Assembly (NCBI GenBank): GCA_000333855.2
Contig: CM007339.1
Span: forward strand, 551,777-615,776
Reading direction: 5' to 3'
Length of the DNA stretch: 64,000 bases
Source: Endotrypanum monterogeii
Taxonomy: Eukaryota > Euglenozoa > Kinetoplastea > Trypanosomatida > Trypanosomatidae
Shown here piece by piece: positions 18,917 through 53,048 of the stretch (the stretch's first letter is position 1; every line of letters starts with the position of its first letter). Under the pieces are notes generated by a model. That model had not been told where the DNA came from, did not search any database, and saw only the letters and a program-made list of their open reading frames with translations. A program made the position numbers and the translations under genes.

Positions 18917-19773
18917 CTACTCCCTCTGTATAGAAGGAGGGGGGCGGCGAGAGACTGCAGCTTGTCCTCTGGGGGGTACCCGCTATGCAGGCTGTTGGGT
19001 GTCGGCAGAGAGGTCTGGGTCGCTCCTGTGTCGAGGGGACCTGGAAAAATCGTGGTTGACAGCTGTGCTGGCCGCTGTCGGAGGCTTGTGACTTCAATAG
19101 CGAGCGAGCGGGATATTTCCGCTCTCACACACCCACGAGCACGTCTTACCCTGCGGCGACACATGCGGGCAGGCGACCCGTGCATGAACTGAACCCTGCC
19201 CCCCCCCGTGGCAACGATGCTAAGAACAGCTTTAAGAAGGAAAGGGTCCCCCACCACTCGCCCACCTCAGCACAAGCATCGCCAGGAGGCAGCCTCCATG
19301 ATGCGAAGGCGCGAGCGCTGTAGAAGCACCCCGTAAGGAATGGTCTTAATCGTGTGGCACATTGAGAAGAAAAAAAAGATGCAGGAAGTCAGAGAGCAAG
19401 GCTTGAGAGGATTACGAAAAAAATCAACGTTGACCTACTTCAGCATGCTTATCCTCAAACCACACAGCACTCCTTATATACGACCGTGGAGACGAATGTA
19501 AGGCGGATGCCAGAAACTTGGCTAGACTGCCCACAGCAGGGGGGGGGGCTTTGGAGAAAGCATAGCTCCTCACCGCCTCCCCCCTCCTATGCAACGCCAT
19601 ACTGCCCAGGCCATGTCTGTCTGACACGTGTCGGGCAGCAGGTATCGGGAGGAGGGTGGGAAAATGCCGAGGGGCTCTCTGTCAACTGTAGATCCACTCG
19701 ACCACAGAAAACAGTGCGCGGTCGATGACCAAAGCGGCAGCCGTGTTGCAGTAGATGTCTGGTCAGCTGTTGC

Positions 19774-19804
<31 letters not shown>

Positions 19805-19834
19805 GTTCGAACGCATTTTGTGAAACTGTTCATG
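18917..19834 (+). repeat. left arm of a ~0.92 kb inverted repeat pair
   Basis: This ~918 bp sequence is repeated in reverse complement at 27188-28110. Matching starts at CTACTCCCTCTGTATAG (18917) and ends at GTGAAACTGTTCATG (to 19834). The two arms differ at only a few bases that I could find, plus run-length changes in C/G homopolymers and the internal (TA)n. No convincing reading frame is conserved in it. It lies downstream of the transporter gene, so it would be in that gene's 3' UTR or spacer. It might be or contain a SIDER-type degenerate retroposon, which is common in Leishmania 3' UTRs, but I cannot identify the SIDER signature. Confidence 0.9.
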
Positions 19835-21524
19835 ACAGTAAACGGTGGAGCAAAAAGAAGTGAGGGGACAAAGTATACCGTGCTCCTTCATTTGAAGCTG
19901 ATCACGGCTTGAGCGACTCGTAGTAGGCACTTTTTTTTTTTTTTCGTGAAGAGCTCTCGTTGAATCTCTGAGCATAGAACCTTCGAAGGGACTCTGAAAA
20001 AAGGTGGCAACATCGTTTGGGCCCGAGGTTTTCTTCTTCATTCTTGAGCAGAAGAAGATGGAGGTGTGGGGCAGAGGGGGTGTATAACAAGCTCGCAGTT
20101 CTCTAAAGAGGAATTGGCTGTTTCCAATTCAAAAGAAGGGTCAAGAGGGATTTTTTTCTGGATGGATGGCCCTGGTGTGTTTGTGTGTGTGTATCTTTTT
20201 TTTTTTTCAAATCTTTTTTTCTGCAATAATAGTGGAGACTAGCTTCCTCTGTGACAGTAGGCGCTGAAGGACTTCAGGTGTACTCCTCAAAAAAAAAAAA
20301 CGACAAAGGTTGCATTCGTGATATATATTTTACGTGAAGGCGTGCGATGAGTCGAGGTAACTTAGCGAAAATAGGCACTCAGACTGCGATCTAAAGGGTA
20401 CGTGATCTGTAGACTCTGTGTTAATTTCCGCACTGGGATCAGCATATTAGTGTGTATGGTGCATCTTATCAGTGACATTCTATCCGATCGAGTGGCAGTT
20501 GTTCTGCTCGCTTCTCATGAAGAGGACTGAAAAAGAGGAACGAGATTCTTTTCATGTCTTCACTTTAATACATCGGTGTATTACTTTCTACCGTTGATAT
20601 GGGGAAGAGTCTAGTAGGTGAGATATTTTTTGGGACACTTCTTCGAGTTTTTAACAGCAGCAGAAAATAAATAAATCTTCGAGGGGCGGCCAAAGATTGA
20701 AGACGGAATTCTGAGCGTTTTAATAGTTACACCAGCCGTGTATGCATGTTGTGGTGCGAGGAGCGCGACGAGTGTGTCGAAGTGATCTCCCCTTTTTTGT
20801 TTATCCCAGCTCATAGGAGCTCCGCTGGTGTCAAAAAAATAATAAGATAACACCGCTGTTTCTCGTCGTTCCGCTGATTGAGCTGGAGTGCGCCTCAGCA
20901 CGAGTGCTGTTATGGCCAAGCGATTTTGTTATTCATAAGTTGTATTGGTAGCACCCGTAGCAAGATACACCTACATTATGATCAGCTGACATGGAGGAAT
21001 GGCAGAAATGATGGCTGCTTTGTGTCTTCCAGGGGTGGATCTCTCCATCTTTTAAGCCTTTCCCTCCGTTTTCGTGCATTTTTTCTCCATCCTCATCTCA
21101 CATAGTGTACGTATCGAGGTCAGTGCGTCCCCCCCCCCTTCCTACTGGTGAGGTTGAAGGAGTGTGTTTACGTCTACGTATATGTGTGTGTTTGAGGTGG
21201 GTGGGTGGGTGGGAAAGGGTGTCTAGCACTTGTTTGGGCAGCGTGCACTGAGGGTCGCTGTCGTGTTTGTTTTCTGTGGTTGTCACAGGCGGTTGCACGA
21301 GTGTGCGCTAGTGCCTCGTGTCTAACCCGTTGCTCTTCCCCTGAGGACGTTCACATAGGTACCCTTTTTGTTTTGTATATCGGAAGAACTTTCCAACGCG
21401 GTCCCAAGAGTTGAAGTGACCACTCTTCTTGTGGCACCACGGCCTAGAGGGTTTTAAACAAGTGCGGCGTCTGCTCTCTTTAGACTCGCAGCCATCCCCA
21501 CAACCCTTTTCGCTGGCCGTGAGG
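19835..21524. other. spacer
   Basis: T-run at 19931-19944, further T-runs at 20197-20209 and A-run 20289-20300; no gene recognised. The segment 21468-21481 is pyrimidine-rich with AG at 21482-21483 and may be the acceptor for the IF3-like gene. Confidence 0.5.
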
Positions 21525-24254
21525 ATGCGTCGTGCAGCAGGGAGTGTATCGCTGGAGGGCGGTTTTTCAGCCGCTTCTGTCGGCCCTCTGCTGTTTTTTT
21601 TCCCGTCTTTGCGGCAACAGAGGCACCAGCTGCATATGCCGCCCGGCGGCTTCGAGGAGGCGCTGCCGAAATCGTTTGGCAGACAAAGCGGAAAAGGGGA
21701 GCTGAGTAGCGTAAATTTGCGTACCAGGCAACAGAAAGCACACCGTGTGAAAAAGAATCGGCAGAAGCTACGGGTACCGCTGAGGGATTCTGTCCCGACG
21801 TTGGCCAAAGTGAAAGGTGAGCTGCTTCACCTCATACACCGGACGCGGGAGGCACGTGGGGGGTCCATGTTGAAGCTTGCAGAGGTGGAGGGTATATGCG
21901 CAACAGAATCTTTCTCCTCCCCGTCTGCTAGCCGCACCCTACCGACCGACATCGCCGATATTGTTTTCCACGAGACCAAGGGAGAGGGAACGTCCGTGCT
22001 TCCTTCACAACAACCCACCCCCTTCGTTGACGATTCTAGCGAATTCGCAGCAGCAATCGGGGCGGCGAGCGCAACGTCTTCGGTTTCTCTTCTTCCAGTG
22101 CCTTCGCCATCAGGGGAGGCGTGGACTTCGCATGAGGATGCCGTGGAGCGGGGCTACGCCATCAAGCCCACAAGCACTATCTTTGGGACTGATCTCGATC
22201 GACTCGAGCGTGACATGATGCGGGATCATCACCAGAGGGGTGCCAGGCTACCACCGCGTGATCGTGTGTACGCCGAGTTCGGTGCCAGTCAACTCGGCCG
22301 GCGCATGCAGTGGGAGCCGTCGTCGTCCTTTGATCATCTGGCTGCTTCTGCCTTTTGTTCCAATAAGCGGAGCAAGATGGTGGTGGGAGACGAAACGAAT
22401 CGCAACTTGGCTCCTTACCATATGTATGCCGAGGCATATCAAACGCAACAGGAGGAGAAGGAGCGATCAAGGCGCGGCGAAGCCTCAAAGGCCATGGGTG
22501 TCAACCTTTGCCGCGCGGATCAAGGTGCTAGTAGCATCGCCGAGGCCGACCTGCCCGCGTGGGAAAATCCTCACTTTCCTGTTGTAGGCTCTGGCCACAG
22601 GGATTCCTCGGGGGCATCATCATCCACACACACCGGCGCACTCGACGAGGTGCTTCTCGACTGTGCAAGCGGCTCGCCAAAGGAGGTTGTAGTAAACGCT
22701 CGCACCGACTACAAAGCACGGATGTCCATCGTGCCGAGTCCACCCGGCGAGGGCGAGGATACAAACCGTATCGTTTACGATGCGTACCGGCAGAGGCCAG
22801 CCGACAACACACTTCTCGAGGTCCGTGGTGCGGATTACTGGGGCGACTACGAGAGAAGACGTCGCGTGGAAGAGCGCAGTGTATATCGGCAAGCGGCAAT
22901 CGCGAGAGAGGTGATGCAGGAAGGGGCAGTGGATACGAGTGAAGTGGAGTACAGCACGAACAGGGTGCGCAAGGAGACGTTGCTCTACTTTCAGGCACAC
23001 CCAATCAACGAGATGATTCAAGAACCCTTTGTCCGTATTCGCGAGTTTATGCCCACCGGCGGCGGCGCGAGAGTTGCATTCAACCCCAACGATCCTCCAC
23101 CGGTGCTGCCAAACAGCGACAGTGGAGATCGAAAGGTTGTTGAGTCGATCAACATGGACGTCGACATACCCGTTCAGGAAGCGCGGAGGATGGCTCAAGA
23201 GATTGGATTGGATTTAATACGCATTGGTGCCCTCTACTCGCAGAAGACGGATCGCCGCATCATCGCGCTCTGCATGATTGGTGACCACCGCGAGCATATG
23301 CGTGAAATGATCAAGTTCAAAATGCAGAAGCTTGGCGTGCAACCGCCACCGACCAAGGAGTGCGTGGAGGTGCCCTTCAAGGGCGGCACCCATCCACACG
23401 CGATACGTTTCAAGTGCGCGGGTGTGGCAAAGCACCTTCTTCACCGCCACGTCATCCGGATCAACTTGACCAAGTTCGGCACGCCACGTGAGGGGTTTCC
23501 TGTCTTGCAAACGATTTTAGACGAGCTCAAGCGGCAATGCATGCGGTTGAAGGCTTACCACACAGCTGGGCAGATCCAATCGAACTATGACGAAATTTTC
23601 TGTTACCTGTATCCTTCTACGGGACGATCTCCCAAGACGACTGTACTGCACCCCACTCCGCAGCAGGTTCTGGAAGCACGCGACGATCGAATTCTTGAAA
23701 ATGAGAAGGAGATCTACTTCGACGATCTGCACGACAAAGGTACGCGAAAGGAGCGACTTCAGTACATGCTGAAGCTCGAGAATGGCACCGCCTGGGCGGA
23801 AAAGGATGAGGGTATGTCCCTGCAGCGGCAGCGTGCCATCAAGGTGATGCTCGGGTACCTCCCGAAAGGAAACCGGGAGTTATACGCTGCCCGTGGTGAT
23901 GTAAACATTCCTGCACCGTTCCGTGCCAGTCACCCAACATCGGTCCACAAGTGGTCGTACCCGTCCGAGTCCAATTTGGAGCAGGCGAGTCGTGGCGCAG
24001 CTGCGTTGGGTAAGCGTGCTGCTATGCCAATCAGCGAAATGCACGACGCTGGGGAGACACCAGAGAACCCCACGCAGCTCGATCGCTTCTACTACACGGC
24101 GCAGGGGCCTGCCCTCGAAATGGGCGAGTTCAAGGAGGCGCTAGGTCTCAAAGACAACCGGGCGCGGCGTCCACCTGCAGGGCCCGGGTTCGCCACGCTG
24201 GGTGTCGAGGCTGCAGACAGCGAGGCTATGCGGTCGGGCTTTGCCACAAAGTAG
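21525..24254 (+). CDS. mitochondrial translation initiation factor IF-3-like protein
   Basis: 909 residues from ATG 21525; the frame continues upstream only to a TTG. Residues about 533-672 match bacterial/mitochondrial IF-3: an N-domain part (PVQEARRMAQEIGLDLIRIG), a linker rich in Lys/Met (HMREMIKFKMQKLG), then the C-domain (KECVEVPFKGGTHPHAIRFK ... INLTKFGTPREGF). IF-3 binds the small ribosomal subunit and governs initiation; in trypanosomatids the mitoribosome is protein-rich, and large divergent factors are usual. About 530 residues precede the domain and 235 follow it, far more than the ~180 residues of bacterial IF-3. The N-terminus MRRAAGSVS is basic, compatible with mitochondrial import. 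The gene lies inside the 7.35 kb segment bounded by the inverted repeats. Confidence 0.68.
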   Translation: MRRAAGSVSLEGGFSAASVGPLLFFFPSLRQQRHQLHMPPGGFEEALPKSFGRQSGKGELSSVNLRTRQQKAHRVKKNRQKLRVPLRDSVPTLAKVKGELLHLIHRTREARGGSMLKLAEVEGICATESFSSPSASRTLPTDIADIVFHETKGEGTSVLPSQQPTPFVDDSSEFAAAIGAASATSSVSLLPVPSPSGEAWTSHEDAVERGYAIKPTSTIFGTDLDRLERDMMRDHHQRGARLPPRDRVYAEFGASQLGRRMQWEPSSSFDHLAASAFCSNKRSKMVVGDETNRNLAPYHMYAEAYQTQQEEKERSRRGEASKAMGVNLCRADQGASSIAEADLPAWENPHFPVVGSGHRDSSGASSSTHTGALDEVLLDCASGSPKEVVVNARTDYKARMSIVPSPPGEGEDTNRIVYDAYRQRPADNTLLEVRGADYWGDYERRRRVEERSVYRQAAIAREVMQEGAVDTSEVEYSTNRVRKETLLYFQAHPINEMIQEPFVRIREFMPTGGGARVAFNPNDPPPVLPNSDSGDRKVVESINMDVDIPVQEARRMAQEIGLDLIRIGALYSQKTDRRIIALCMIGDHREHMREMIKFKMQKLGVQPPPTKECVEVPFKGGTHPHAIRFKCAGVAKHLLHRHVIRINLTKFGTPREGFPVLQTILDELKRQCMRLKAYHTAGQIQSNYDEIFCYLYPSTGRSPKTTVLHPTPQQVLEARDDRILENEKEIYFDDLHDKGTRKERLQYMLKLENGTAWAEKDEGMSLQRQRAIKVMLGYLPKGNRELYAARGDVNIPAPFRASHPTSVHKWSYPSESNLEQASRGAAALGKRAAMPISEMHDAGETPENPTQLDRFYYTAQGPALEMGEFKEALGLKDNRARRPPAGPGFATLGVEAADSEAMRSGFATK

Positions 24255-25022
24255 AAAGCTTCAGGAGTTGGCTTACAGTCACGGATATCCCCCCTTTTTT
24301 AAAATGCTCGCACGACGTGGCCTATGCGAGGGAACGTGGAGACATTCGATTGTGAAGAGGAAAGGAGGGGGGGGGGGGGCGGTGTTTCAAACATTTCGGC
24401 TCGTTTGCTTGTTCTGCGGGTAACGGCTACGCTCGTGGCGCAAGTGAGGTGCAGACCGTGCGATGTCTGTTCTCTGCGCTACGGGTTGAGGGGTGGGTGA
24501 GTGGGTAGGGGAGGCAGCCATAGCTGCATACATAAACCTCTTTTTTCTCTTCCTTTTTGGCTTATCAATCTCTGCTGGTAGAGGAAGGATTCATGAGGAA
24601 GTAAAGCAGAGATGTGTGCAACTTCACAACTGATAACAGATGTCGCTGTGTCGTCAGAACGAGTAAGAAGTATTTGAGCGAGTGACAGTGTCCAATCATC
24701 GCATCGGTGGTCTCCTGAGCTTCCGCTGAGGGAAATGAAATGGAGTGCTGCGAACATCTTCCGCAATGAGGATGGCAAGCCCGCAGAGTGATCTGAGGTC
24801 GAAGTACGACAGCAATGCGTTTGTGGGACTGAAGCGTATCGCATGTTTGATGCATTTTCGGCTACCTGGTCTATCATCTTTATTACTTGTGTGTGCGTCA
24901 CGACACATATTTTTCTCTTCCTTCGCTTGCATCTTCGCTGTTCTCATCTTTTTATTCGGCAAAAAAAAAAAATACCAACCCTTGACAGACTAAAAAGCTA
25001 TCTCGCACTCACCTACTAGCTC

Positions 25023-25074
<52 letters not shown>

Positions 25075-25458
25075 GCGCACTCTCTCTCACGCGCTGTTCG
25101 AAAAACAGGGGAGAAGTAAGAAAAAAAAAAACGGGTCCTCGTTTCACGTTTTATCGGGCAGCAATATTGAGAGAAGAGGGATAGGAAGAGGCAGGTGCTG
25201 TTGAGATTTTTCCCAGCTTCCTCCTTTCCATATTTCAGTTTATATTTCGCTGTGTTCTTCTTTTTCATTCTATTCCACTTTTTTTTTTTTCGCGACGTAG
25301 ACGACTGCCTCGCCTCAAATTGCTGTGCCGTTGTGTTGCGTTGCATTTCTTTTTCTTGTTTTCCTCCTTCCACGCACCCGCTCACACCGTCGTCGCCGCA
25401 GGAGGGCAGTGAAGGGGAAGAGAAGTTGATTCTAGACCAAAGGTCACTCTTTTTCACA
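24255..25458. other. spacer with CA tract and splice acceptor
   Basis: G run at 24367-24380, (CA)n at 25028-25071, A/T runs at 24960-24972. Pyrimidine tract 25255-25290 with AG at 25299-25300 likely marks the 5' end of the FKBP mRNA. The frame upstream of 25459 stays open to a GTG but is hydrophobic low-complexity sequence translated from the tract itself. Confidence 0.55.
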
Positions 25459-26757
25459 ATGGGGGATCAGCCGATCGATAGCTTGGAGAGCTCTCTGAGT
25501 GAAGACAGCCAGCCTCCGATGGAGGTGAATTTCCCTTTAAATGAGGAGGTGGAGGTGCCTGGGACGAATGGGGGATTGCACAAGACAGTGCTGGTGGAGG
25601 GTGCTGGGGCGCCACCAGTGAAGGGGGCCAAAGTAACGGTCCACTACGTTGGCACCTTGTTGGATGGCACCAAGTTCGACAGCAGCCGTGACAGGGGTGA
25701 TTACTTTGAGTTTGATCTCGGCCGTGGTCAGGTAATCAAGGGCTGGGACAAGGGTGTCGCGACAATGCGGATTGGCGAGAAGGCGTTGCTGAAGTGCTCG
25801 CCGGAGTACGCCTATGGCGCTGCTGGCAGCCCGCCAACGATCCCTGCCAATGCGACGCTTCTTTTTGAAGTGGAGCTGTTTCATTGGACGCGCGAGGTGG
25901 ATGTCTCCGCTGCGAAAGACAAGTCGCTTATGATGAACGTGCTGAAGGACGGTGTCGATTACGAAAACCCGAGCTTCGAGTCTGCCGTAACGATGGACCT
26001 CCTCATTTATCTTGGCGCCTTTGATCCAGCGGACAAGGAGAAGCAGACACCGGTGAAATCGATCAGTGACTGGAAGGTAATTGTTGGCGTCACGTCGCTG
26101 CCTCCACACTTGGAGACATTCCTATACAAGATGCGCAAGCATGAGGCTGCCGCGTGCCGGGTGCGCGGCGATCTGATCTCTGACGCAGTGCCTGAGTTTG
26201 CCATTCCCTCCAGCGCCGAACGGGACCACTGCGACGTCACATACGTGGTCGAGATCAGCGAGTTGAGTCGTGTGAAGACATACGACTTTTCTGGAGAGGC
26301 CAAAATCGCGGAGGGTGAGAAGCGCAAAAATAATGGCAACGACGCCTTCAAGGATGGTAAGCTGGACCTTGCAGAGCGCTTCTACCGTCGTGCAATGGAA
26401 TTCATTGGGGAGGACTACGGTTTCGATGACGCACTCAAGACTGAATGCCACCGTGTGCGCATCAGCGTTATGGGGAACCTGGCGCAGGTGCTTCTGATGC
26501 GCAAGCAGTACACCGAGTCCGCAGACTTTTCACATAAGGTGCTGAAGCTGGACACCAAGAACACAAAGGCGCTATTTCGCCTGGCGAAGGCGCACGATGG
26601 CATGCAAAACTGGGAGGAGGCTGTGAAGTATGTCGATGAAATTCTCGTCATTGAGCCGGAAAACGTTGACGCGGTGACGTTGAAAGCACGCCTTCGACAG
26701 GAGCAGAAGGCGTTTGACCAAAAGCAGAAGTCTTTGTTCAAGAAGATGTTTGTCTAG
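25459..26757 (+). CDS. FKBP-type peptidyl-prolyl isomerase with TPR domain (FKBP52-like)
   Basis: 432 residues from ATG 25459. The first FKBP domain (about 35-140) keeps the active-site set: [23 protein letters not shown], and a terminal LFEVELFHW, so isomerase activity is likely. A second, degenerate FKBP-like region follows (about 150-275). The C-terminus has three TPR units; basic and Asn residues in [17 protein letters not shown] and [11 protein letters not shown] fit the carboxylate clamp that binds the HSP90/HSP70 EEVD tail. It is therefore a cytosolic HSP90 co-chaperone. I recall a single FKBP52-like gene of Leishmania in this chromosomal neighbourhood. It shares the inverted-repeat-bounded segment with the IF3-like gene. 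Confidence 0.9.
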
Positions 26758-26786
26758 AGGCTAGGGACGTTCCAGTGGCCTCCTTG

Positions 26787-26818
<32 letters not shown>

Positions 26819-27187
26819 TAAGCACTCTTCGGTCTTCCTTTCCGTCCTCTTTTATTCTACCCGTGACAGAAAGGGAAGCGAGGGTGTCGGGTGACGATTG
26901 ATTCCTCTGCTTCAGATTTCTTCTCGCCCGCCCCCCCTCCCCTCCCTCCTCCGTTTTTCACACCACTTTTTTTTTCTTCTGCCTAACATTTTCCCCTCCT
27001 TTGTCAAGGGTCTACCTGTGCTCTCTTCAGTGATTTGTCTGGTATTTCTCACCGGCACCTTTTGGGACAGTCGATCATAGCCGCAGAGATGAGCTGGTTG
27101 TTCACTATCACCACCGTCAGAGTTTTTTTTTTTTTCGCCCCTCCGTTTTCGACTTTACTTTCTGGTTCAGTAGGTGTGTTATTCTTC
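26758..27187. other. spacer before the right inverted-repeat arm
   Basis: (TA)n at 26786-26814, C-rich then T-rich pyrimidine stretch at 26920-27000 and T-run at 27124-27135. No gene seen. Confidence 0.5.
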
Positions 27188-27217
27188 CATGAACAGTTTC
27201 ACAAAATGCGTTCGAAC

Positions 27218-27250
<33 letters not shown>

Positions 27251-28110
27251 GCAACAGTTGACCAGACATCTACTGCAACACGGCTGCCGTTTTGGTCATC
27301 GACCGCGCACTGTTTGCTGTGGTCGAGTGGATCTACAGTTGACAGAGAGCCCCTCGGCATTTTCCCACCCTCCTCCCGATACCTGCTGCCCGACACGTGT
27401 CAGCCAGACATGGCCTGGGCAGTATGGCGTTGCATAGGAGGGGGGAGGCGGTGAGGAGCTATGCTTTCTCCAAAGCCCCCCCCCCCTGCTGTGGGCAGTC
27501 TAGCCAAGTTTCTGGCATCCGCCTTACATTCGTCTCCACGGTCGTATATAAGGAGTGCTGTGTGGTTTGAGGATAAGCATGCTGAAGTAGGTCAACGTTG
27601 ATTTTTTTCGTAATCCTCTCAAGCCTTGCTCTCTGACTTCCTGCATCTTTTTTTTTCTTCTCAATGTGCCACACGATTAAGACCATTCCTTACGGGGTGC
27701 TTCTACAGCGCTCGCGCCTTCGCATCATGGAGGCTGCCTCCTGGCGATGCTTGTGCTGAGGTGGGCGAGTGGTGGGGGACCCTTTCCTTCTTAAAGCTGT
27801 TCTTAGCATCGTTGCCACGGGGGGGGGGCAGGGTTCAGTTCATGCACGGGTCGCCTGCCCGCATGTGTCGCCGCAGGGTAAGACGTGTTCGTGGGTGTGT
27901 GAGAGCGGAAATATCCCGCTCGCTCGCTATTGAAGTCACAAGCCTCCGACAGCGGCCAGCACAGCTGTCAACCACGATTTTTCCAGGTCCCCTCGACACA
28001 GGAGCGACCCAGACCTCTCTGCCGACACCCAACAGCCTGCATAGCGGGTACCCCCCAGAGGACAAGCTGCAGTCTCTCGCCGCCCCCCTCCTTCTATACA
28101 GAGGGAGTAG
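27188..28110 (-). repeat. right arm of the ~0.92 kb inverted repeat pair
   Basis: Reverse complement of 18917-19834, about 923 bp. Differences noticed: a G/A change near 27889, single changes near 27320 and 27402, a G run of 10 versus a C run of 9, a longer C run near 27477 and a different (TA)n length. Homology stops abruptly at both ends. It lies between the FKBP and carnitine acyltransferase genes. Confidence 0.9.
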
Positions 28111-28772
28111 CAGATAATTTGATTGTAAGGTGCGAGATACCCATCGTGGACAGGCGTAGTCTAGAGTGCAGCAACAGATAATAATGAAAGCAAAGCAGTA
28201 AGTGGGGTTCACGAAGAGTTCTCACGTCCGCTCAGCTGAGCTGCACAGCTTGTCCGAAGTGAGAATTCTTCGTATGGGAGGCGGCCGTACCCGTTAGTTG
28301 CTGACAGTGGAAGGAAGTGCTCGGCTTATCGGCTGTCTCGAGGGAGATGGCTGCTGCACCCGTAGCCTCCTCACATACTGTCAGATGTTTTTATGTTGTC
28401 AATTGCAGGCCGCCATATGTGTTCAGATGCTTTGCCCCTGTAGAAGAGGAGGACAAAACGCGACGGATTGCTTCTTTCTAGTTTGCGCGGTCGACGGTGG
28501 AAGTGTGATGTAAATTCCACCCTCACTGGGCAACAAGAAATCCATTATCTGTTCACTACTCTCCCTCATCTTCATGCTCACTCGCTGCTTTGTGGATTTC
28601 CTTTCACACACACACACACACACACACACAAACGTACATACAGATTCTTAATCCCCCGTGCTTCGTTTATTATTTGCTCGAGGCTTGCAGCAAATTTCCT
28701 GTTAGCGTCTGATCCATTTGATTGCACGCAGACAATTTTACCGTCTCTCCACGCGGTCATGTGTCAGGCGTC
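28111..28772. other. spacer with hairpin and CA tract
   Basis: Holds a stem-loop with 15-base arms at 28211-28225 and 28259-28273 (one mismatch) whose loop contains the 12-bp palindrome GCTCAGCTGAGC (28230-28241). (CA)n at 28605-28630. A short upstream reading frame, ATG 28759 to TGA 28791, overlaps the start of the next gene. Confidence 0.5.
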
Positions 28773-31370
28773 ATGGCTGAGGCGTTCTTGAGTCAGCAGC
28801 CGCACCCGGCCAAGCAGGCCCGGGAGGCGGGGCCGTCTGTGATGGAGATGCGAGTTTCGTGGACGAGTAATGGCCTGGATGTTCACATTCCGCCGCCGCG
28901 GTACATTTGGCGCGGCATACACCGCTCCATCGTGGACAACATCGACAAAGTGTCGGCCATGCTATACCCCGTTCCCTTCTCGTGTGTCGTCGCTTGCGCA
29001 GCTGGGTCGTGCTTCTGTGTATGGTATGTACCACAAACCTCTTGGCTTCACACGAATCCAGCGAGCAAGTGGCTGCGCTACGTCGACACCATCGTAACAC
29101 CCTTTTCGCGTTACCTCCCCCCCGCCTCGCAGGCACCCGTGCTCTGCGCAAAGGTATGGGTCGTCGGGCTCGCTGCGGCAACGGTGCTACATCGCTTCTC
29201 TCTGCGGAGGCTGCTGCGGTACAAGGGATGGATTCTGGAGAGAGATCCCCAGAAGCCCTCGTGGCGCACGCGTGTGTGGTCGCTGGTCGTCCGCACTTTC
29301 TTTGTTAGTCCATCCATCCCAAAGATGGGGGTGTATGGGCGCTGTCTCCCCAGTGTGCCTCTGCCTTCGTTGCAACAGACGGTGAACGGCTACTTGTCTA
29401 GCATGCGTTCTATTTATCACCAAAGGGACAGTGACGTCAACGATTGGCTGGAGCTGCGCCGTTCCGCGGAGTCTTTTCTGCTCAATGAGGGGCCGTCACT
29501 GCAGATGTACCTGCGACTGCAGCGCGTGATGAGCCAAAACTATGTGTCGGAGTTGTGGACCCGTAACGTGTTTCTTGCTGCGCGAGACTCGCTGTGCCTG
29601 CACTCCAACTTTTACACTGTCCCCTTCGCAGAGCATTTACCAACAACTATCCCCGAGGCGCGCGCTGCCGTTCTTATTTATCTCCTCGCGCAGCTGAAGA
29701 GCCGAATTGAGTGTCGTACCTTGTGCCCCAACTTTACTGGTCCTCGACAATGCGTTCCGTTGTCCATGAATCAGTACTCGATGGCGTTCAACACAACTCG
29801 TATCCCAGGCCGTGAGATCGACGTCCTCGAGCACACCAGGGAGCGTGAGAATAATTACTTCGTGATTCTCTATCGAGGTCGAATTTATCAAATGACAGTC
29901 GTGGACCCGCAGACGGGGCGTCTGCTTACACCACACCAGTTGGAGGTGGTGCTGCACCAACTGCTTGTGGAGGTAGAGGAGGAAGTAAGCACTGGCCGCG
30001 ACGAGTCTGAAGAGGATGACGCAGAAGACACACTCGAGACACTCGGAAAGAAGCGCTCGTATCGTATACTGGAGACACACCTCCCTGTGTTGACCACTGC
30101 GCCCCGTGCACAGTGGGCTGATGTTCGCAATAGCTACATGCTCCACGATTCCAGCAACAACATTCCTTTACGCATCATCGAGAAGGCGATGTTTGTTGTC
30201 AGCTTTGATGAGCGATGCGGGATGTCTAGACACCAAAAGCCAAGCTCATCCCTGCCGGATGGCAGGCCCCTCTCCACGGATTGCGCTCATTACCTCTGTG
30301 GCAACGGCTCTAACCTATGGTGCGACAAGAGCTTCAATCTTGTCATTCGGTCTGATGGCCACGTTGGGCTGCACGTGGAGCACTCGTGGTGTGACATGTC
30401 TACTTTTCTCGGCTTCTTCGAGCATGTTGCGGCGCAGGAGGAGTCTGCCGAGCTTTGGTATGATGTGGAAACCGGACACGCCAAGAAGCTGACGGAGGAC
30501 AGGCGTCGTGCAAAGCTGTTTTCAGCGCCCGATATGGACGACCCGCTTTACCCAAAGCGGTTGCGTTTCGTTATCTACAAAAAGCTAGGTCTAGCGATTC
30601 GAGAGGCGCACACCGAGTTTCTATTCAACGTGGGCTCGCAGGTGGATCTGCATATCGTCCGGTACACCGGATATGGGCGTGAGGTACCCAAAGGCATGGG
30701 TTGCAGCCCAGACGCCTGGGTTCAAATAGCGATTCAGCTCGCTCACTACTATGATCAGGGTGGACATTTGAGTCTTGTGTACGAGTCAGTGCCGCAGCAC
30801 ACGTTTGCTAAGGGTAGAACGGAGGCGGTACGGAGTGTGACTGACGCGAGCACTGCTTTTGTAAAGGCGATGGCCTCGCCTGAGGGCGGCGATGCCGCCA
30901 TGCCTGCGGAGGAGAAGTGCGCGTTATTGGTGGACGCCTGCGCCCATCATCAGCGCGCTGTGCAGGAGGCGGTGGCAGGGCGCGGAGTGGATCGGCATCT
31001 CTTCGCGTTATTCATGGCGAGTGTTAGTCAGGAAACACCTTCTGATTTTCTTACAACTGCTCTTCGCAAGACCGAGTGGAAGGTGAGCAGCGCTCAAGCG
31101 CATCAACGCACTCTGCTTGATCGACTCCATCCTGCAGATGGGGGGAAGGTGTATCACGAGACGCCAGGGTTCGGCTTCGGCCCTGTTTCTGCCGATGGCT
31201 ACGGCATCTCCTACTGTTTTTGCGTCAACGGGGTACTCTACATCACCATTACATCTCACAAGAACTGCGATACCACTTCTTCACGCGCCTTAGGGAACCA
31301 CATTGTGAAGGCACTCGATACTTTGGGCAATCTCAGCATGTCTTGTCGCCGCGCTTCAGCCCCGTTGTGA
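28773..31370 (+). CDS. carnitine O-acyltransferase, CPT1-like
   Basis: 865 residues from ATG 28773 (the frame extends upstream only with a TTG). Two N-terminal hydrophobic segments, about 68-87 and 127-143, precede a choline/carnitine acyltransferase domain, the layout of outer-membrane CPT1. The catalytic histidine is in HVEHSWCDM (His537), with the acceptor-site features PLSMNQYSMAFNTTRIPGRE and LSLVYESVPQHTFAKGRTE. An acidic insert (EVEEEVSTGRDESEEDDAED) splits the domain near residue 395. The enzyme transfers long-chain acyl groups between CoA and carnitine for mitochondrial import. The membrane placement suggests a CPT1-type role, but soluble carnitine acetyltransferase activity cannot be excluded from sequence alone. 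Confidence 0.85.
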   Translation: MAEAFLSQQPHPAKQAREAGPSVMEMRVSWTSNGLDVHIPPPRYIWRGIHRSIVDNIDKVSAMLYPVPFSCVVACAAGSCFCVWYVPQTSWLHTNPASKWLRYVDTIVTPFSRYLPPASQAPVLCAKVWVVGLAAATVLHRFSLRRLLRYKGWILERDPQKPSWRTRVWSLVVRTFFVSPSIPKMGVYGRCLPSVPLPSLQQTVNGYLSSMRSIYHQRDSDVNDWLELRRSAESFLLNEGPSLQMYLRLQRVMSQNYVSELWTRNVFLAARDSLCLHSNFYTVPFAEHLPTTIPEARAAVLIYLLAQLKSRIECRTLCPNFTGPRQCVPLSMNQYSMAFNTTRIPGREIDVLEHTRERENNYFVILYRGRIYQMTVVDPQTGRLLTPHQLEVVLHQLLVEVEEEVSTGRDESEEDDAEDTLETLGKKRSYRILETHLPVLTTAPRAQWADVRNSYMLHDSSNNIPLRIIEKAMFVVSFDERCGMSRHQKPSSSLPDGRPLSTDCAHYLCGNGSNLWCDKSFNLVIRSDGHVGLHVEHSWCDMSTFLGFFEHVAAQEESAELWYDVETGHAKKLTEDRRRAKLFSAPDMDDPLYPKRLRFVIYKKLGLAIREAHTEFLFNVGSQVDLHIVRYTGYGREVPKGMGCSPDAWVQIAIQLAHYYDQGGHLSLVYESVPQHTFAKGRTEAVRSVTDASTAFVKAMASPEGGDAAMPAEEKCALLVDACAHHQRAVQEAVAGRGVDRHLFALFMASVSQETPSDFLTTALRKTEWKVSSAQAHQRTLLDRLHPADGGKVYHETPGFGFGPVSADGYGISYCFCVNGVLYITITSHKNCDTTSSRALGNHIVKALDTLGNLSMSCRRASAPL

Positions 31371-32587
31371 GGACTCGGGAGGGTGTAGCCCACTCACCTG
31401 CTGAAGTGGCCAATTCGCGGCGCGGCAATTTTTCCCTGCAGGTACAACGCTCGGCGCATGGGAAGACACCTGAGGAGGTCAGCAAAAATAAAGGGCAGCC
31501 TCGGCGGTGGTGGTGGTGGTGGCGGAGAGGGGGGATATGGGGTAAAGGCGACAGCCATTATGTTTTTCTTTTCGACAAAGGTATATATCTATATATATAT
31601 ATATATATATATTGATTTTTTCCCTTTTTTATCCCTCTCCCCATCTATACCTCTTCCTGTCGATGCGCTTTTTATCCTTGGCCAAATGACTATACATTCG
31701 TGCTGTTTCCCATCGAATACCTTGTTCTATTCGTTGGCGAACAACAGGGGGTGGGTGGGTGGGGGCATCACCTGCCACGCTCGTACATATTTGATCTGAG
31801 AATAAAGGGCGCCCGTGTGTGTGTAGAGTGAGAAGCGCTGCGGCACAGAATGAGTACAAGTCATTTTCCGACGATATATATGTGATTCCGCAGCGCACGT
31901 ACTTTTGATCCGCACTCGAAAAGGCGTGCCCTCGCTCATGCACAGAAGAAGAAAAAAATGAAGAACACGAAGGTTTGAGTGCGCAACTATTTTCCACCTA
32001 CCATTTTCTTAGAAGCACGAGGAAAGTCCCCCCTCCCCTCTTCTCCCTTCCCACCTCCTGCACCCCAAAACACACACATATATATATATATATATATATT
32101 GGCAAGGAGTGATTACATGCCCCTCTTGTGTTCTTGCCTAGTCTCGCGAAGGCACATATTCAGGCAGCAATACTTTTCTTCTGTGTCTCCCGTTATTCTC
32201 GATTCCCCTTTGCACTGGTGCCGCCCTCTACAGGAATACATCTGCAACAACAGTGTTTACTTGAATAACCTCGTGCTCTCTTCAAATATTCACACAGGTT
32301 CATACGTACTAGGGAAGGTGCATGGCTTATCTCAACGCACCTTACCGCCATATCTAGGAGTCCAGAGGAAGATTGTTTATTGTCAGTGACTTCGTTACAC
32401 ACACACACACACACGCACACACACAGACACACACATACGCCACCTCATCCCCACTCTAGAGATCGCGCCTGTGCTGTTTTTCGCATTTCCGCTTCCATCA
32501 GTAGAACTGCAGAGGGGGGCGTAGAGACAGGTCAACACCTGTGGGCGGTCAGATCACCCGGGGTGGGGGGGGCACACATTATTCATA
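31371..32587. other. spacer with GGT, TA and CA tracts
   Basis: (GGT)n at 31505-31522, (TA)n at 31582-31612 and 32078-32099, (CA)n at 32397-32434. AG at 32500-32501 after a pyrimidine-rich stretch is a likely splice acceptor for the WD-repeat gene. No gene seen. Confidence 0.5.
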
Positions 32588-33793
32588 ATGGCCAACTCAG
32601 GCTCTGCGACGGGTGAGGACGGGGCGAAGCGCTTTAGCCGCCAGCAGATCATTCAGCACGTAAAAAAAAGTTTGCTTTATACGGCCTTTGACGTCAGGTG
32701 GGTGCCGCAGACAGCGTCCTTCGTGGTGGTCGGTCAGTACCCCAATAACCATGGCGCGCTTTCCCTGTACCAGCTGCACCACGGAGATCTAAATCCGACG
32801 GTAGAGGTGCGGCTTCCACACCCACTCAAATGCTGCACTTTTGGGCATAATGCGTCTTTTGGCAGCATCGGAAACGGAGGCGCGGGTACGAGCGGTAGCA
32901 CTGCTCCTGCTGGCGTGACAGCAAATCAGATCGCGACGGGTGACTTTGCCGGCAGCTTACAGATATTCGATTTGAGTCGCCTCGGCTCGAGGAACGCGAA
33001 CGCATCCAATGCCTTGAGCGATGTGACAGAGGCATCTGTGCTACACATCCCTCACGCGCACGAAAGCATAATCAACGCCATCGACGGTGCGCGCTACTCG
33101 GGGCCACCGGAGGTGGCAACAGGAAGCCGCGACGGTGCCGTCAAGGTGTGGGACACCCGTCAGTCTAACAAGCCTGTGGTTTCTCTGAACCCTGCCGATC
33201 CTGCCCGCGCCCGCGACTGCTGGACAGTGCGGCTAGGAAACAGTTTTGACGTGGATGAGCGCGTGGTGGCTGCAGGCTACGATAATGGTGACGTCAAAAT
33301 ATTCGACCTACGGACGCAAAAGATGTTACACGAGATGCACGTGAGCAATGGCGTGTGCGATTTGGAGTTTGATCGACCCGACATTCCCATGAACAAACTC
33401 TTCGTGTCATCCCTGGAGGGCCGTGTGCGGTGCTACGATATGCGTACGTTGCATCCTAAGCTGGGCTACGCGTATGTGGAGGAACGCGTATCTGAAGGCA
33501 CCGTGTGGTGCTCGCGCGCGCTTCCACAGAATCGAGAAATATTCTTGAGTGGTGGTGGTGGCGAACTGGCACTGTCTCTCTACAAGTACCCCCCAGAGCG
33601 TACCCTGAAAGACGGTGATGGGCAGCAGCGCGGTGTACCTGGTGCGGTGGAGGCGCTGAACAAGGTGAAAATTGGCGATCAGCCGATCAACGCAGTGGAT
33701 TGGAATCGCTCTAAGGAGGGCCTCGCCGTTTGCGCTTCTTTCGACCAGTGTGTTCGGGTCATGCTGGTCACGAAGCTCAGTTTGTTGCTATAG
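32588..33793 (+). CDS. WD-repeat protein, WDR92/DNAAF10 (Monad) type
   Basis: 401 residues. Beyond generic WD repeats it shares stretches with human WDR92: HGDLNP, the ESIINAIDG segment, ATGSRDGAVKVWDTRQ, RDCWTVRLGNSF, GYDNGDVKIFDLR, NGVCDLEFDRPDIPMNKL, STVW-like EGTVWCSRALPQNREIF and CASFDQCVRVMLVTKL. Length (human 357) is increased by a Gly/Ser/Ala-rich insert at about 98-118 and a longer Ser/Asn/Ala-rich stretch in the first propeller blades. WDR92 is a cytoplasmic adaptor of the R2TP/prefoldin-like complex and is needed for axonemal dynein assembly in flagellates. Together with the PIH1 protein at the left, this puts two proteins of that pathway in one window. Confidence 0.9.
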   Translation: MANSGSATGEDGAKRFSRQQIIQHVKKSLLYTAFDVRWVPQTASFVVVGQYPNNHGALSLYQLHHGDLNPTVEVRLPHPLKCCTFGHNASFGSIGNGGAGTSGSTAPAGVTANQIATGDFAGSLQIFDLSRLGSRNANASNALSDVTEASVLHIPHAHESIINAIDGARYSGPPEVATGSRDGAVKVWDTRQSNKPVVSLNPADPARARDCWTVRLGNSFDVDERVVAAGYDNGDVKIFDLRTQKMLHEMHVSNGVCDLEFDRPDIPMNKLFVSSLEGRVRCYDMRTLHPKLGYAYVEERVSEGTVWCSRALPQNREIFLSGGGGELALSLYKYPPERTLKDGDGQQRGVPGAVEALNKVKIGDQPINAVDWNRSKEGLAVCASFDQCVRVMLVTKLSLLL

Positions 33794-35401
33794 CGCCATG
33801 GCAAAGGGGTAAGTGGTAAAGTCACGGGGACAAGATGGATAGAGCTGTCATCGCCAATACATATTAGATGGGTGCAAGCGTGCATGCGAGGAACTCCCTC
33901 GTGGCCTGAGTCTCTCTTATTAGTTCTGTCGTAAACAGCGAACGAAACACATGTACTCTTCTGCATTCATGACTGCGACTCTGTACCCCCAACTCCCCTT
34001 TTTCGTTTTCTCCCTCGCACTTCTTGTTCTCACGCGACTTTTTTTTTTTCGTTTGCAATGTTTTCTTGGACTGCGCTTTAGTCCCGTGCGCGTGCGCGGT
34101 CTTCAGCAAAGAATACGTGACTGCCGTCCAAACGAAAGGTGATCATGTGGTTCTCCCCTGGACTTGGTTCCACTTGCTGTTGATGGGCAATGTTGCTGTC
34201 TGTCCTCGTTTCTCGTTGCCATTCCCGGGGTATTTGCATAGACCGCAGTCATTGTTGTCAGCGGTGCAGGTTTGAGTGTTCGTCTTTGTGTATGCATCGA
34301 GTGAGTTGAGGGTTCTGAGACCAGAGGGGGGGGGCGAGCACCAGGTGCATACTCTCTCAGTGTCACGGAGGGGGTACCACCCCTCTCGCTCCCCTCTTCC
34401 CTCTTTCTTCTCCTTCAGGCCTTTGGTATTTCTTTCGTTTTGCGTATTACCTTTTTTTGTTTCTCTTTCCCTTCCCTTCCGTGGGTGTCTTCAAATTACC
34501 ACAGCAGGCGAGAGATCACTCTGCCGAATGATGTATCCAATACACCCCTACCCGAACCCACCGATGGACGGGACCAGCAGCCTCAGGAAAGGCTTCAGGT
34601 CGCTAAGGATAACCTGCATGTGCACAGACGCAAGGGGTCAACGACAAGCTCTACATGGCTGCTGTCCGCGTCGACATAACGTGAGGAGGATAGCCATCTT
34701 CACAATAGACGTGGGTCTTTGAACATCTTGCTTCTCACGCGTGTGCGTGTGCGGTGGGCGTTTATTTATTTTTTCCCCCAAAGTGAGGAAAGGATGCAGG
34801 TGGTGAGATATCAATATACATATATATCTATATATATATATATATCTATATATCTATATATGAGTATCGCTACTCTTCTGGATCCCCTCTCATTCCGCAC
34901 ATCGGTGAGGGATGCAAGAGAGATGGCATTCGGTGATATATATCGTCTGCTCTCGAGTGCTGTGAATCTTAATTTTGGATGCAGACGTCGGCCAAACTAC
35001 TGTCATGCTTTTCTGATGCGCTTTTTTTTCTCACCTGTATTCTTGACCCATGTATTTACACCCTCGTCGCATCTCTGCGCGCACGCACGCATGTACACAT
35101 ACGCCAGTCCGCCTCGTGTCTTTCCTTCTTCCTGCGCAGATTTCTCTTAGCTTCACGCATATTCCCTCACCTGCTACCTTTACCTGTAGCACGTCAACGA
35201 GAAAACGCGTCGTCTTCCCCCCCCTTCTTCTTCTCCTCTCACTTATTTTTTTTCCCCGTAGTTGCTTCCCCTCCATCTCAGCAAGTTGCTACCGGACTTT
35301 CCATCGTCGTTGACTCCTTTCAGCTCACCTGATAAGGTGCACTCGTCGTCTTCTCTCGCCCTTGTTTCCCACCTGTTACCGTGGTGAATACCGTCAACAG
35401 A
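33794..35401. other. spacer with TA tract and splice acceptor
   Basis: T-run 34038-34050, G run 34326-34334, (TA)n interspersed with TC at 34812-34861. Long pyrimidine tract 35214-35257 with AG at 35260-35261 is the likely acceptor for IMPDH (5' UTR about 140 nt). No gene recognised. Confidence 0.55.
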
Positions 35402-36946
35402 ATGGCGTCCAATAACTCAAGCTACCGCATCAAGACTATCAAGGATGGCGTAACCGCCGAGGAGTTGTTCCGGGGTGATGGACTGACGTATAATGACTTC
35501 ATTATTCTGCCAGGTTTTATTGACTTCAGTGCCTCTGATGTGAACATATCTGGTCAATTAACCAAGCGTATTCGTCTTCACATCCCGGTCGTATCATCGC
35601 CGATGGACACGATCACGGAAAGTGAGATGGCCAAGAAAATGGCGCTTATGGGTGGTGTCGGCGTGCTGCACAACAACTGCACGGTGGAGCGCCAAGTAGA
35701 GATGGTAAAGTCGGTGAAGTCGTACCGCAACGGGTTCATTTCTAAACCAAAGTCGGTGCCGCCCAACATCCCCATCAGTGATATTATCCGCATCAAGGAG
35801 GAGAAGGGTATCAGTGGCATCCTTGTGACAGAGAACGGCAACCCGCATGGAAAGCTTCTTGGAATTGTGTGTACCAAGGATATCGACTACGTTAAAAACA
35901 AAGACACGCCGGCTTCGGCGGTCATGACAAGACGGGAGGCGATGACAGTGGAGCGTGCGCCAATCCAACTGGAGGAGGCGATGGATGTGCTAAACCGAAG
36001 CCGCCACGGATATCTTCCCATCTTGAACGAGATGGGTGAAGTTGTCTACCTCTGCTCCCGTCGTGATGCTGTTCGCTCGCGCAAGTACCCGCACAGCACC
36101 TTAGATAAGACCGGTCGCCTCATCTGCGCTGCTGCTACCTCAACTCGCCCAGAAGACAAGCGACGTGTGTCAGCGTTGGCGGATGTGGGCGTGGATGTGC
36201 TGGTGCTAGACAGTTCTCAGGGAAACACGATTTATCAAATTGCCTTCATCAAGTGGATCAAGGCTACATACCCACACCTTGAGGTTGTTGGGGGCAACGT
36301 GGTGACACAGGATCAAGCCAAGAACCTCATTGACGCCGGCGCGGACGCTATTCGCATTGGTATGGGCAGTGGAAGCATTTGCATCACACAGGAGGTACTC
36401 GCATGCGGTCGCCCCCAGGGTACGGCTGTCTTTAAGGTGGCGCAGTACTGTGCGTCTCGCGGCGTCCCGTGCATTGCCGACGGCGGCTTGCGCCAGGTCG
36501 GCGACATATGTAAGGCTCTGGCGATCGGTGCCAACTGCGCGATGCTCGGTGGCATGTTGAGTGGCACGACGGAGACGCCTGGAGAGTACTTCTTCAAGGG
36601 TGGCGTTCGCCTGAAGGTGTACCGCGGCATGGGTAGCCTGGATGCGATGAGTCAAGGCAAGGAGTCTGGCAAGCGCTACCTTTCCGAGAACGAGGTGGTG
36701 CAGGTTGCACAAGGTGTATCCGGCAACGTTGTGGACAAGGGCTCTGCGACGAAGCTCGTCGAATACGTCGCAAAGGGACTTCAGCAGTCTGCGCAGGACA
36801 TCGGCGAGACGAGCTTTGACGCGATTCGAGAGAAGATGTACGCCGGTCAGGTTCTCTTCAATCGCCGCTCTGCTACGGCACAGAACGAGGGTGGCGTGCA
36901 TTCGCTTCACAGCTACGAGAAAAAGCTGTTTGCAGCGAAGCTTTAA
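35402..36946 (+). CDS. IMPDH: inosine-5'-monophosphate dehydrogenase, glycosomal
   Basis: 514 residues from ATG 35402, the length I recall for Leishmania IMPDH; the upstream open codons begin only with GTG. It catalyses the NAD-dependent oxidation of IMP to XMP, the first step to guanine nucleotides. The barrel contains the substrate loop GMGSGSICITQE with catalytic Cys327, and GGLRQVGDICKAL with MLGGMLSGTTETPG. A pair of CBS domains (about 110-230) interrupts the barrel. The protein ends in AKL, a type 1 peroxisomal targeting signal, which places it in the glycosome, as established for Leishmania IMPDH. All functional elements look intact. Confidence 0.96.
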   Translation: MASNNSSYRIKTIKDGVTAEELFRGDGLTYNDFIILPGFIDFSASDVNISGQLTKRIRLHIPVVSSPMDTITESEMAKKMALMGGVGVLHNNCTVERQVEMVKSVKSYRNGFISKPKSVPPNIPISDIIRIKEEKGISGILVTENGNPHGKLLGIVCTKDIDYVKNKDTPASAVMTRREAMTVERAPIQLEEAMDVLNRSRHGYLPILNEMGEVVYLCSRRDAVRSRKYPHSTLDKTGRLICAAATSTRPEDKRRVSALADVGVDVLVLDSSQGNTIYQIAFIKWIKATYPHLEVVGGNVVTQDQAKNLIDAGADAIRIGMGSGSICITQEVLACGRPQGTAVFKVAQYCASRGVPCIADGGLRQVGDICKALAIGANCAMLGGMLSGTTETPGEYFFKGGVRLKVYRGMGSLDAMSQGKESGKRYLSENEVVQVAQGVSGNVVDKGSATKLVEYVAKGLQQSAQDIGETSFDAIREKMYAGQVLFNRRSATAQNEGGVHSLHSYEKKLFAAKL

Positions 36947-37070
36947 CGTGTCTTGACAGGTCGCCGTCAATACCATCCGGTTTCCCACCTCCTGCCTTCC
37001 TCTTTCTTTTGGTGGCACCGTGTTTCACCTCCCTTTTCTTTTTTTGCTGCTGTTGCTCCTCCAGGGACAC

Positions 37071-37112
<42 letters not shown>

Positions 37113-37791
37113 GCACACACATATCTGTTGAGTGACCAGTCGATGATTTTTATTTCTGTTTGCTTGCCTAGCACGCCCCTTCTTGTGTGCATTTCACTGA
37201 AGCGATACACGCCAGTCTCGAGCTCCTCCTTCATAAATGCTGTTCTGTGCTCCACTGACTTGCTCTGAGAAGGGCTTTGGTGACGAGGTTTTGCCACGTT
37301 CTTTCTCTTATTCCAGTTTTGTTCTAATTGCGTGTCGGAGCTCGCCATTTTTTTTTTTTCGCGTTTAGAGGCTTCAGGCACGTGCCGTGTGATGTGATGC
37401 AAGACGTCACCAAAAATGCTAGAGGGCTTTTTGGGGGAGTCGTGAAGACACTTGGAAGGGGTTGTGAAGAGCAGAGCACAGCGGCTCCCCCCTCTCGACC
37501 GCTTTTGCAGTGATGTTTTTTTTTGTTGCTCCAGAACAGAACATTATCCATTGTGTGTGTGTGTGTGTGGCTACATCAGCGCTAAGTAGGAAATCCTTTT
37601 CTTCTTCCCTTTTTTCTTTTCCCCGCTCTATTCTGAGAGAAAAAAAAATCAAGTTGGCGCTCATCAATATAAGGGATCACGCTGGCTGGCTGCTGAAGAA
37701 ATGAAGCCCCACTCGTCTCCACTCCACTCCACTTCGCTTTTTGATTGATTTATTTATGCGCGTCTATATGTACGTCTGTATCCGTTTCTCT

Positions 37792-37828
<37 letters not shown>

Positions 37829-46896: not shown

Positions 46897-46929
46897 CTGA
46901 TTGGCCTCCCTTGCGAGAGAGAGAGAGAG

Positions 46930-46965
<36 letters not shown>

Positions 46966-47591: not shown

Positions 47592-47630
<39 letters not shown>

Positions 47631-53046: not shown

Positions 53047-53048
<2 letters not shown>

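What the first reader, a model, noticed from the sequence alone, without database searches (positions are those of the whole stretch)
18917..28110. Long near-identical inverted repeats enclosing a two-gene segment
Two ~0.92 kb sequences in opposite orientation (18917-19834 and 27188-28110) bound 7.35 kb that holds the IF3-like and FKBP-TPR genes. Identity looks above 99% and homology ends sharply. Seen directly. From knowledge: in Leishmania, inverted repeats can seed extrachromosomal linear amplicons and inversions under drug or stress selection. Inference: this locus may be amplifiable or invertible; inversion would place both genes antisense to the transcription unit. Near-identity over 7 kb suggests recent origin or ongoing gene conversion.
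Basis: partly seen in the sequence, partly recalled or inferred. Interest (0 to 1): 0.75.

Follow-up and report, generated by a model that had tools for sequence, protein, structure and literature searches.

The report
Inverted repeat pair in parasite chromosome
Two almost identical 0.92-kilobase DNA copies lie in opposite directions around two ordinary genes near a chromosome end of a close relative of Leishmania; pairs like this are well known in Leishmania as places where extra DNA copies can form, so the find is ordinary, but it suggests the habit extends to the sister lineage.

Summary
Arm A (18917-19834) and arm B (27188-28110, reverse strand) align over 923 columns with 913 identities, 5 substitutions and 5 gap columns. 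They enclose 7,353 bp with an mt-SAF39-like gene and an FKBP-TPR gene. Searches of the 30.7-Mb own assembly find only these two full copies. No ORF of 200 aa touches the arms; no terminal poly(A) or edge target-site duplication was seen. Gene order is that of Porcisia. The organism is not Leishmania proper: three proteins are closest to Porcisia hertigi (82-88%); size and GC fit Endotrypanum monterogeii (inferred).

Best reading: a low-copy, chromosome-specific intergenic inverted repeat of the kind called RAG in Leishmania, predicted to seed an ~81-kb palindromic linear amplicon carrying the telomere-ward genes, IMPDH among them. Amplification is not shown. Two further dispersed low-copy families without long ORFs on the same contig look alike: near-identical copies, no clear diverged relatives in 314 kb, GC higher than in every flank measured. 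Caveat: the assembly has gaps and probable gap-fill noise, so near-identity may be partly artefactual.

The parts
18917..19834 (+). Arm A of the inverted repeat (918 nt, intergenic, GC 0.549)
27188..28110 (-). Arm B of the inverted repeat (923 nt, intergenic, GC 0.547)
19835..27187 (.). Spacer of 7,353 bp; the 921-bp piece of it that was searched (20300-21220) occurs once in the genome
21525..24254 (+). mt-SAF39-like gene, 909 aa (mitoribosome assembly role recalled)
25459..26757 (+). FKBP-type prolyl isomerase with TPR repeats, 432 aa
17073..18041 (+). Upstream flanking gene, triose-phosphate transporter family (TPT), 322 aa
28773..31370 (+). Downstream flanking gene, carnitine/choline acyltransferase, 865 aa
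35402..36946 (+). IMP dehydrogenase gene, 7.3 kb telomere-ward of arm B; would be carried twice by the predicted palindromic amplicon
28111..64000 (.). Telomere-ward flank held in the contig (35,890 bp); predicted product with arms and spacer 80,974 bp without the unassembled end (inference)

Best explanation
The feature is a private, two-copy, intergenic inverted repeat, of the same kind as the repeat alignment groups (RAGs) of Leishmania. Shown: two near-identical arms, no other full copy found in the assembly, no sign of a mobile element among the features tested, gene order as in Porcisia, and a position 36-45 kb from the contig end. Inferred: the copies arose by inverted duplication or insertion of an intergenic stretch, or were later homogenised by gene conversion. 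Inferred by analogy: when a fork stalls or DNA breaks nearby, one arm can anneal to the other, prime synthesis out to the telomere, and give an ~81-kb palindromic linear molecule with the telomere-ward genes twice and the two enclosed genes once. In the assembled state the repeat has no visible effect on the genes.
For: 913 of 918 aligned base pairs identical, sharp ends. Two full copies in 30.7 Mb (the other two of the four rows are about 30-nt TA-tail matches inside the arms), while a neighbouring 921-bp control gives one. By the published RAG cut (at least 200 bp, at least 85%), 10 pairs occur in the 314 kb of contig C19 that I held; 5 of the 10 belong to three dispersed families with no ORF of 200 aa and with 2, 3 and 2 copies; genome searches put every copy found on C19. 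RAGs are described as usually confined to one chromosome and low-copy, with inverted pairs nearer telomeres (PMC4028189, section 7 and passages). In L. infantum the candidate inverted repeats at PTR1 are 440-790 bp and at least 85% identical, and those used most for linear amplicons are 3-10 kb apart (PMC4256157, passages); here 918 bp, 99.5%, 7.35 kb. Gene order equals P. hertigi tags JKF63_05856, 05857, 05858. [quoted passage not shown] donovani is on record (Wilson 1992, title only, in the reference list of PMC5335649); that it carried IMPDH is my recall.
Against: No read, depth, junction or long-molecule evidence of an amplicon or inversion was available. No DNA of Porcisia or a second strain was available, so the age of the pair and conversion versus recent duplication are unresolved. 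Amplification at inverted repeats is demonstrated in Leishmania; my two searches found no report for this lineage. All five substitutions lie within 222 bp of an arm edge (p about 0.026 if uniform), which pooled short reads could also give. The sample of C19 is weighted to the chromosome ends, so nearness to the end is weak evidence.
Confidence: 0.66

Rival explanations
1. Assembly inflation: the arms are real repeats but more diverged than they look, or one arm was partly filled from the other, because reads shorter than 0.9 kb were pooled.
For: The contig carries N stretches, two of round size (5,000 and 2,500), and a 20-N gap in the window flanked by odd simple-word sequence that looks like gap-filling noise. 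All 5 substitutions lie within 222 bp of a unique edge, none in the 480-bp interior; uniform expectation p about 0.026.
Against: The arms do differ at 10 columns, and the genes are in the order of P. hertigi, so a false inversion is unlikely. Two other families on the contig show similar near-identity, though they share the same risk.
Confidence: 0.15
2. Inert recent duplication: an intergenic stretch was copied in inverted orientation recently and has no role in rearrangement.
For: Only 5 substitutions; no clear diverged relatives; no function seen in the sequence.
Against: Leishmania repeats of similar length, identity and spacing do rearrange; three low-copy families on one contig argue for a recurring process.
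Confidence: 0.3
3. A pair of SIDER-type degenerate retroposons or another retroelement remnant in opposite orientation.
For: Arms are GC-richer than their flanks (0.549 and 0.547 against 0.43-0.52) and SIDER2 elements are GC-rich (61-70% in the table rows seen of PMC2424063); most L. major RAG repeats are SIDERs (67.9%).
Against: Only two full copies found; the first 784 nt of arm A have no relative in 314 kb beyond one hit at E 0.33; arm longer and less GC-rich than SIDER2; no terminal poly(A), no edge TSD, no long ORF. P. hertigi has 50 INGI-class copies against 435-1671 in the 13 Leishmania rows seen of Table 1 of PMC12278014. The 79-bp signature itself was not tested.
Confidence: 0.06
4. 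RNA-level role: the two arms in one polycistronic transcript pair into a long duplex, or supply splice/UTR signals.
For: Both arms lie between same-strand genes; three of three pyrimidine runs of 12 nt or more in the 1.2 kb before the acyltransferase ATG lie in arm B.
Against: Opposite orientation means the two RNAs do not share sequence. Rfam gave one hit in 18800-28300, far below its cut-off (22.4 against 83 bits). For RNA interference: one Piwi hit (C21) and one RNase III hit (C20), the latter closest to PDB chain MP90. The PAZ search found nothing, but its control also failed, and I had no positive control for a trypanosomatid Argonaute or Dicer, so absence is not shown.
Confidence: 0.05

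Closest known systems
Repeat alignment groups (RAGs) of L. major, L. infantum and L. braziliensis (PMC4028189)
   Same: Intergenic, 0.2-2.5 kb, at least 85% identical, low copy, usually confined to one chromosome; inverted pairs tend to lie near telomeres.
   Different: Found here in the Porcisia/Endotrypanum lineage. No SIDER was recognised in the arms (signature untested), whereas 67.9% of L. major repeats are SIDERs. No rearranged junction has been looked for.
Inverted repeats A-E at the PTR1/MRPA locus, chromosome 23 of L. infantum (PMC4256157)
   Same: Similar arm length (440-790 bp there, 918 here) and spacing (3-10 kb for the most used there, 7.35 kb here).
   Different: Different chromosome and genes; those were linked by PCR and blots to linear amplicons, this one was not.
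245-kb linear minichromosome with the LD1 region, chromosome 34 of Leishmania (Viannia) (PMC4338418, PMC5936940)
   Same: Palindromic linear molecule with the telomeric region at both ends, the kind of product predicted here.
   Different: Supported there by read depth in L. panamensis and L. shawi; only predicted here, about 81 kb plus the unassembled end.
SIDER1/SIDER2 degenerate retroposons (PMC2424063, PMC2689281)
   Same: Intergenic, GC-rich, both orientations.
   Different: SIDERs are hundreds of diverged copies (785 and 1,073 in L. major), SIDER2 consensus 556 nt; this is two near-identical copies of 0.92 kb.

Membership tests
RAG-type repeat pair | 0.2-2.5 kb and at least 85% identity | tested here: met
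   918/923 nt, 913 of 923 columns
RAG-type repeat pair | Intergenic, noncoding | tested here: met
   No ATG ORF of 200 aa overlaps an arm; longest stop-free stretch 165 codons in arm B, 120 in arm A
RAG-type repeat pair | Same chromosome, low copy number | tested here: met
   Two full copies in 30.7 Mb, both on C19; counts are lower bounds by the tool's own note
RAG-type repeat pair | Rearranged junctions arise between the copies | not testable with these tools
   No reads or DNA samples
SIDER retroposon | Member of a large family of diverged copies | tested here: not met
   Searches (genome, close copies only; 314 kb, profile search): matches outside the arms fall on the (TA)n tail and occur on reversed sequence too, plus one hit at E 0.33
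SIDER retroposon | 79-bp signature | not tested
   The passages read point to figures for its letters
Retroelement insertion | Target-site duplication at the element edges | tested here: not met
   None of 5 nt or more within 25 nt of arm A; for arm B one 5-nt match lying 11 and 17 nt away from the edges
Retroelement insertion | Terminal poly(A) | tested here: not met
   A runs of 6 or more are internal, at 19370 and 19417
Linear amplicon with inverted duplication | Novel palindromic junction and raised copy number to the telomere | not testable with these tools
   No read depth or long reads

The most novel reading that the evidence does not exclude
The repeat-driven amplification platform of Leishmania also exists in its sister lineage, where SIDER-type elements are scarce (known for Porcisia, assumed here), and is built there from private two- or three-copy repeats kept near-identical by ongoing, possibly GC-biased, gene conversion. 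If so the platform does not depend on SIDERs and may predate their expansion in Leishmania. Support: three dispersed families without long ORFs on C19, 97.4-99.4% identical between copies in BLAST, with no clear diverged relatives in 314 kb, each GC-richer than every flank measured, with one inverted pair 30-44 kb from the left contig end and one 36-45 kb from the right.
Probability: 0.3. Interest if true: 0.5.

Novelty: new member of a known kind. Interest (0 to 1): 0.3.

Why it matters
In trypanosomatids genes are transcribed in long units with little control at the start (PMC4028189, passages), so copy number is a main lever of expression. Leishmania pulls that lever through low-copy repeats, most of which in L. 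major are SIDERs. A repeat pair of the same geometry in the sister lineage would let one ask whether the amplification habit came before SIDERs. It also gives a named locus, next to IMPDH, where a junction assay could settle it.

Tried and rejected
Arms as a mobile element: no long ORF, edge TSD or terminal poly(A); no terminal inverted repeat (4 of the first 15 bases agree); not supported. Arms as an RNA gene: Rfam gave one hit far below its cut-off, ARAGORN none in the window. Arms as a dispersed family: sensitive blastn against 264 kb gave only 20-25-nt matches. The nhmmer runs printed nothing because of a format error, found, where they failed again; repeated correctly. In one search matches outside the arms lie on profile positions 792-923, the (TA)n tail; best 16.1 bits forward (E 8.9e-5) against 11.5 on reversed sequence (E 0.0022), so a slight forward excess on the tail remains. 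RNA interference: inconclusive (see rivals). IMPDH amplification in Leishmania under drug: searches listed papers; of these I opened for it only PMC5335649, whose reference list gives the Wilson 1992 title; its link to IMPDH is recalled. That amplification at inverted repeats is unreported in Endotrypanum or Porcisia rests alone: one paper held the terms, where Endotrypanum stands only in a reference, and none did. PMC8004069 reports 27 repeat families (3.66%) in E. monterogeii, most repeats unannotated (passages); whether the arms are among them is unknown. Not done: comparison with Porcisia or other Endotrypanum DNA, SIDER profiles, a census beyond 314 kb of C19, any read-level test.

Rows left out of the 'dispersed, no long ORF' count (5 of the 10 pairs kept): the 1,193-bp direct pair (inside ORFs of 798 and 847 aa), the 1,017-bp direct pair (318-aa ORF), the 511-bp direct pair at 5.9-7.3 kb (no long ORF, but copies 918 bp apart, near-tandem), and two rows of a 26-nt tandem array.

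Full report
Observation. The arms are there. Global alignment of 18917-19834 with the reverse complement of 27188-28110 gives 913 identical of 923 columns, 5 substitutions (19139, 19620, 19708, 19734, 19766) and 4 indels (5 columns) in C, A, G and (TA) runs. The local alignment adds 4 outer columns, one a mismatch. The longest exact shared run is 222 nt; 20 Markov simulations gave 14-124 nt. Outside the edges the flanks look unrelated. The spacer is 7,353 bp.

Where it lies. The window is the right end of contig C19 (551,777-615,776) in an assembly of 30,695,936 bases and 44 contigs (contig length 615,776). The left end of the contig starts with CCCTAA telomere repeats; the right end stops in a short tandem repeat with no telomere repeat. 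The mt-SAF39-like, FKBP-TPR and acyltransferase proteins are 82%, 88% and 87% identical to Porcisia hertigi and less to the named Leishmania species listed (76-77%, 80-84%, 80-81%). Window GC is 0.514 and that of the held left 200 kb 0.518 without N. Published E. monterogeii values are 52.66% GC (M907) and 30.4 Mb (LV88) (PMC10747355, passages). I infer Endotrypanum, probably E. monterogeii; Porcisia deanei is not excluded.

What the arms are not. Genome searches with the whole arm and with the arm minus its (TA) tail find these two full places and no third; two further rows are 30-31-nt matches of the self-complementary TA tail inside the arms. The tool warns that counts are lower bounds. A 921-bp control from the spacer gives one place. 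No ORF of 200 aa touches an arm. There is no target-site duplication at the edges and no terminal poly(A). Rfam has nothing near its threshold. With nhmmer on 314 kb of C19, matches outside the arms fall on the TA tail, and similar though slightly weaker ones occur on reversed sequence; the first 784 nt of arm A match only the arms, apart from one hit at E 0.33. So the SIDER idea fails on copy number, size and GC, although the 79-bp signature was not tested.

Is it unusual here? By the published RAG cut, 10 pairs occur in the 314 kb (290 kb without N) that I held. Five of the ten form three dispersed families without an ORF of 200 aa: these arms (2 copies, inverted); 585/445 bp at C19:30137, 43338 and 78716 (3 copies, 97.4-98.9%, two of three pairs inverted); and 337 bp at 79955 and 112063 (99.4%, direct; the second copy abuts an N stretch). 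Genome searches put every copy found on C19. All seven copies are GC-richer than every flank measured at 400 and 1,000 bp; one flank could not be measured: arms 0.549/0.547, the others 0.60-0.645. For context, 5.1% of 809 overlapping 920-bp windows without a long ORF, the arms included, reach 0.547, so the arms are in the upper tail but not extreme. The families have near-identical members and no clear intermediates (the 585-bp query has weak matches on one part of it, E 0.004 and up, as on reversed sequence), which fits private duplications or homogenised pairs better than an old decaying element. The sample is weighted to the chromosome ends.

Mechanism. In Leishmania, inverted repeats are thought to anneal near a stalled fork or break and prime synthesis to the telomere, giving linear molecules with inverted duplications (PMC4028189 and PMC4256157, passages). 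Their formation was reduced in MRE11-null cells and unchanged in RAD51-null cells, and the repeats used most were 3-10 kb apart (PMC4256157, passages). With the same process here the product would hold arm-spacer-arm (9,194 bp) between two copies of the 35,890-bp flank: 80,974 bp plus the missing end. The flank carries the acyltransferase, a WD40 protein, IMP dehydrogenase, an ELMO-domain protein, an M41 AAA protease, a protein kinase-domain gene, a BTB protein, a PGAP1-like protein and two ORFs without a Pfam match. This product is predicted, not seen. [quoted passage not shown] donovani (Wilson 1992, seen only in the reference list of PMC5335649); that IMPDH is the target concerned is recalled. 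An inversion between the arms would place both enclosed genes antisense in the transcription unit; the assembly shows the order of P. hertigi (tags 05856, 05857, 05858) and, for the first two genes, of L. martiniquensis (06330, 06331) and L. enriettii (06514, 06515). Tags show order, not strand.

Caveat. The window holds a 20-N gap at 53176-53195 with odd repeated words on both sides between two (AC)n tracts, and other N stretches, two of 5,000 and 2,500, exist on the contig, though N may also mean withheld letters. If the assembly was closed with short reads, the arm interiors could have been evened out. The five substitutions all lie within 222 bp of an edge, p about 0.026 under uniform placement. 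Copy number and locus layout do not hang on this; the exact identity, and so the recent-origin or conversion argument, does.

RNA-level readings were checked briefly. One Piwi hit on C21 (49.4 bits; no other Pfam domain in the fragment scanned) and one RNase III hit on C20 were found; the latter matches PDB chain MP90 (2.6e-120), to my knowledge an RNA-editing endonuclease. From recall, Leishmania without RNA interference also has a PIWI-like gene on chromosome 21. The PAZ search is uninformative. I leave this inconclusive.

Verdict. Observation confirmed; interpretation partly supported; a new member of a known kind in a lineage where two searches found no report of it. What lifts it a little is that P. 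hertigi has 50 INGI-class elements against 435-1671 in the 13 Leishmania rows seen (PMC12278014), and one study reports no transposable elements in E. monterogeii (PMC10747355, passages), so the RAG-like layout here is probably SIDER-free.

Noticed in passing
window 53048-53310: A 20-N gap inside unusual sequence made of ACG/GTAC/CGT words, between two (AC)n tracts; looks like gap-filling noise, not biology.
   Followed up: partly
L010:137-721 (C19:30137-30721), C19:43338-43922, C19:78716-79160: A second low-copy family without long ORF (97.4-98.9%), with an inverted pair 30-44 kb from the left telomere, mirroring the arms' distance from the right contig end; GC 0.60-0.645 against 0.44-0.53 in flanks.
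   Followed up: partly
C19:79955-80291 and 112063-112398: A third two-copy family (337 bp, 99.4%, direct); its second copy abuts an N stretch.
   Followed up: partly
window 35402-36946: IMP dehydrogenase gene close to the inverted repeat and the contig end.
   Followed up: partly
window 59346-60647 and 61273-61778: A 433-aa ORF with 81-nt repeats and no Pfam match, then a 26-nt tandem array; the contig ends in a subtelomere-like tandem repeat.
   Followed up: no
C21:121231-122160 (L027) and C20:327305-327574 (L028): Single Piwi-domain ORF and an MP90-like RNase III protein; bears on whether this lineage keeps RNA interference.
   Followed up: partly
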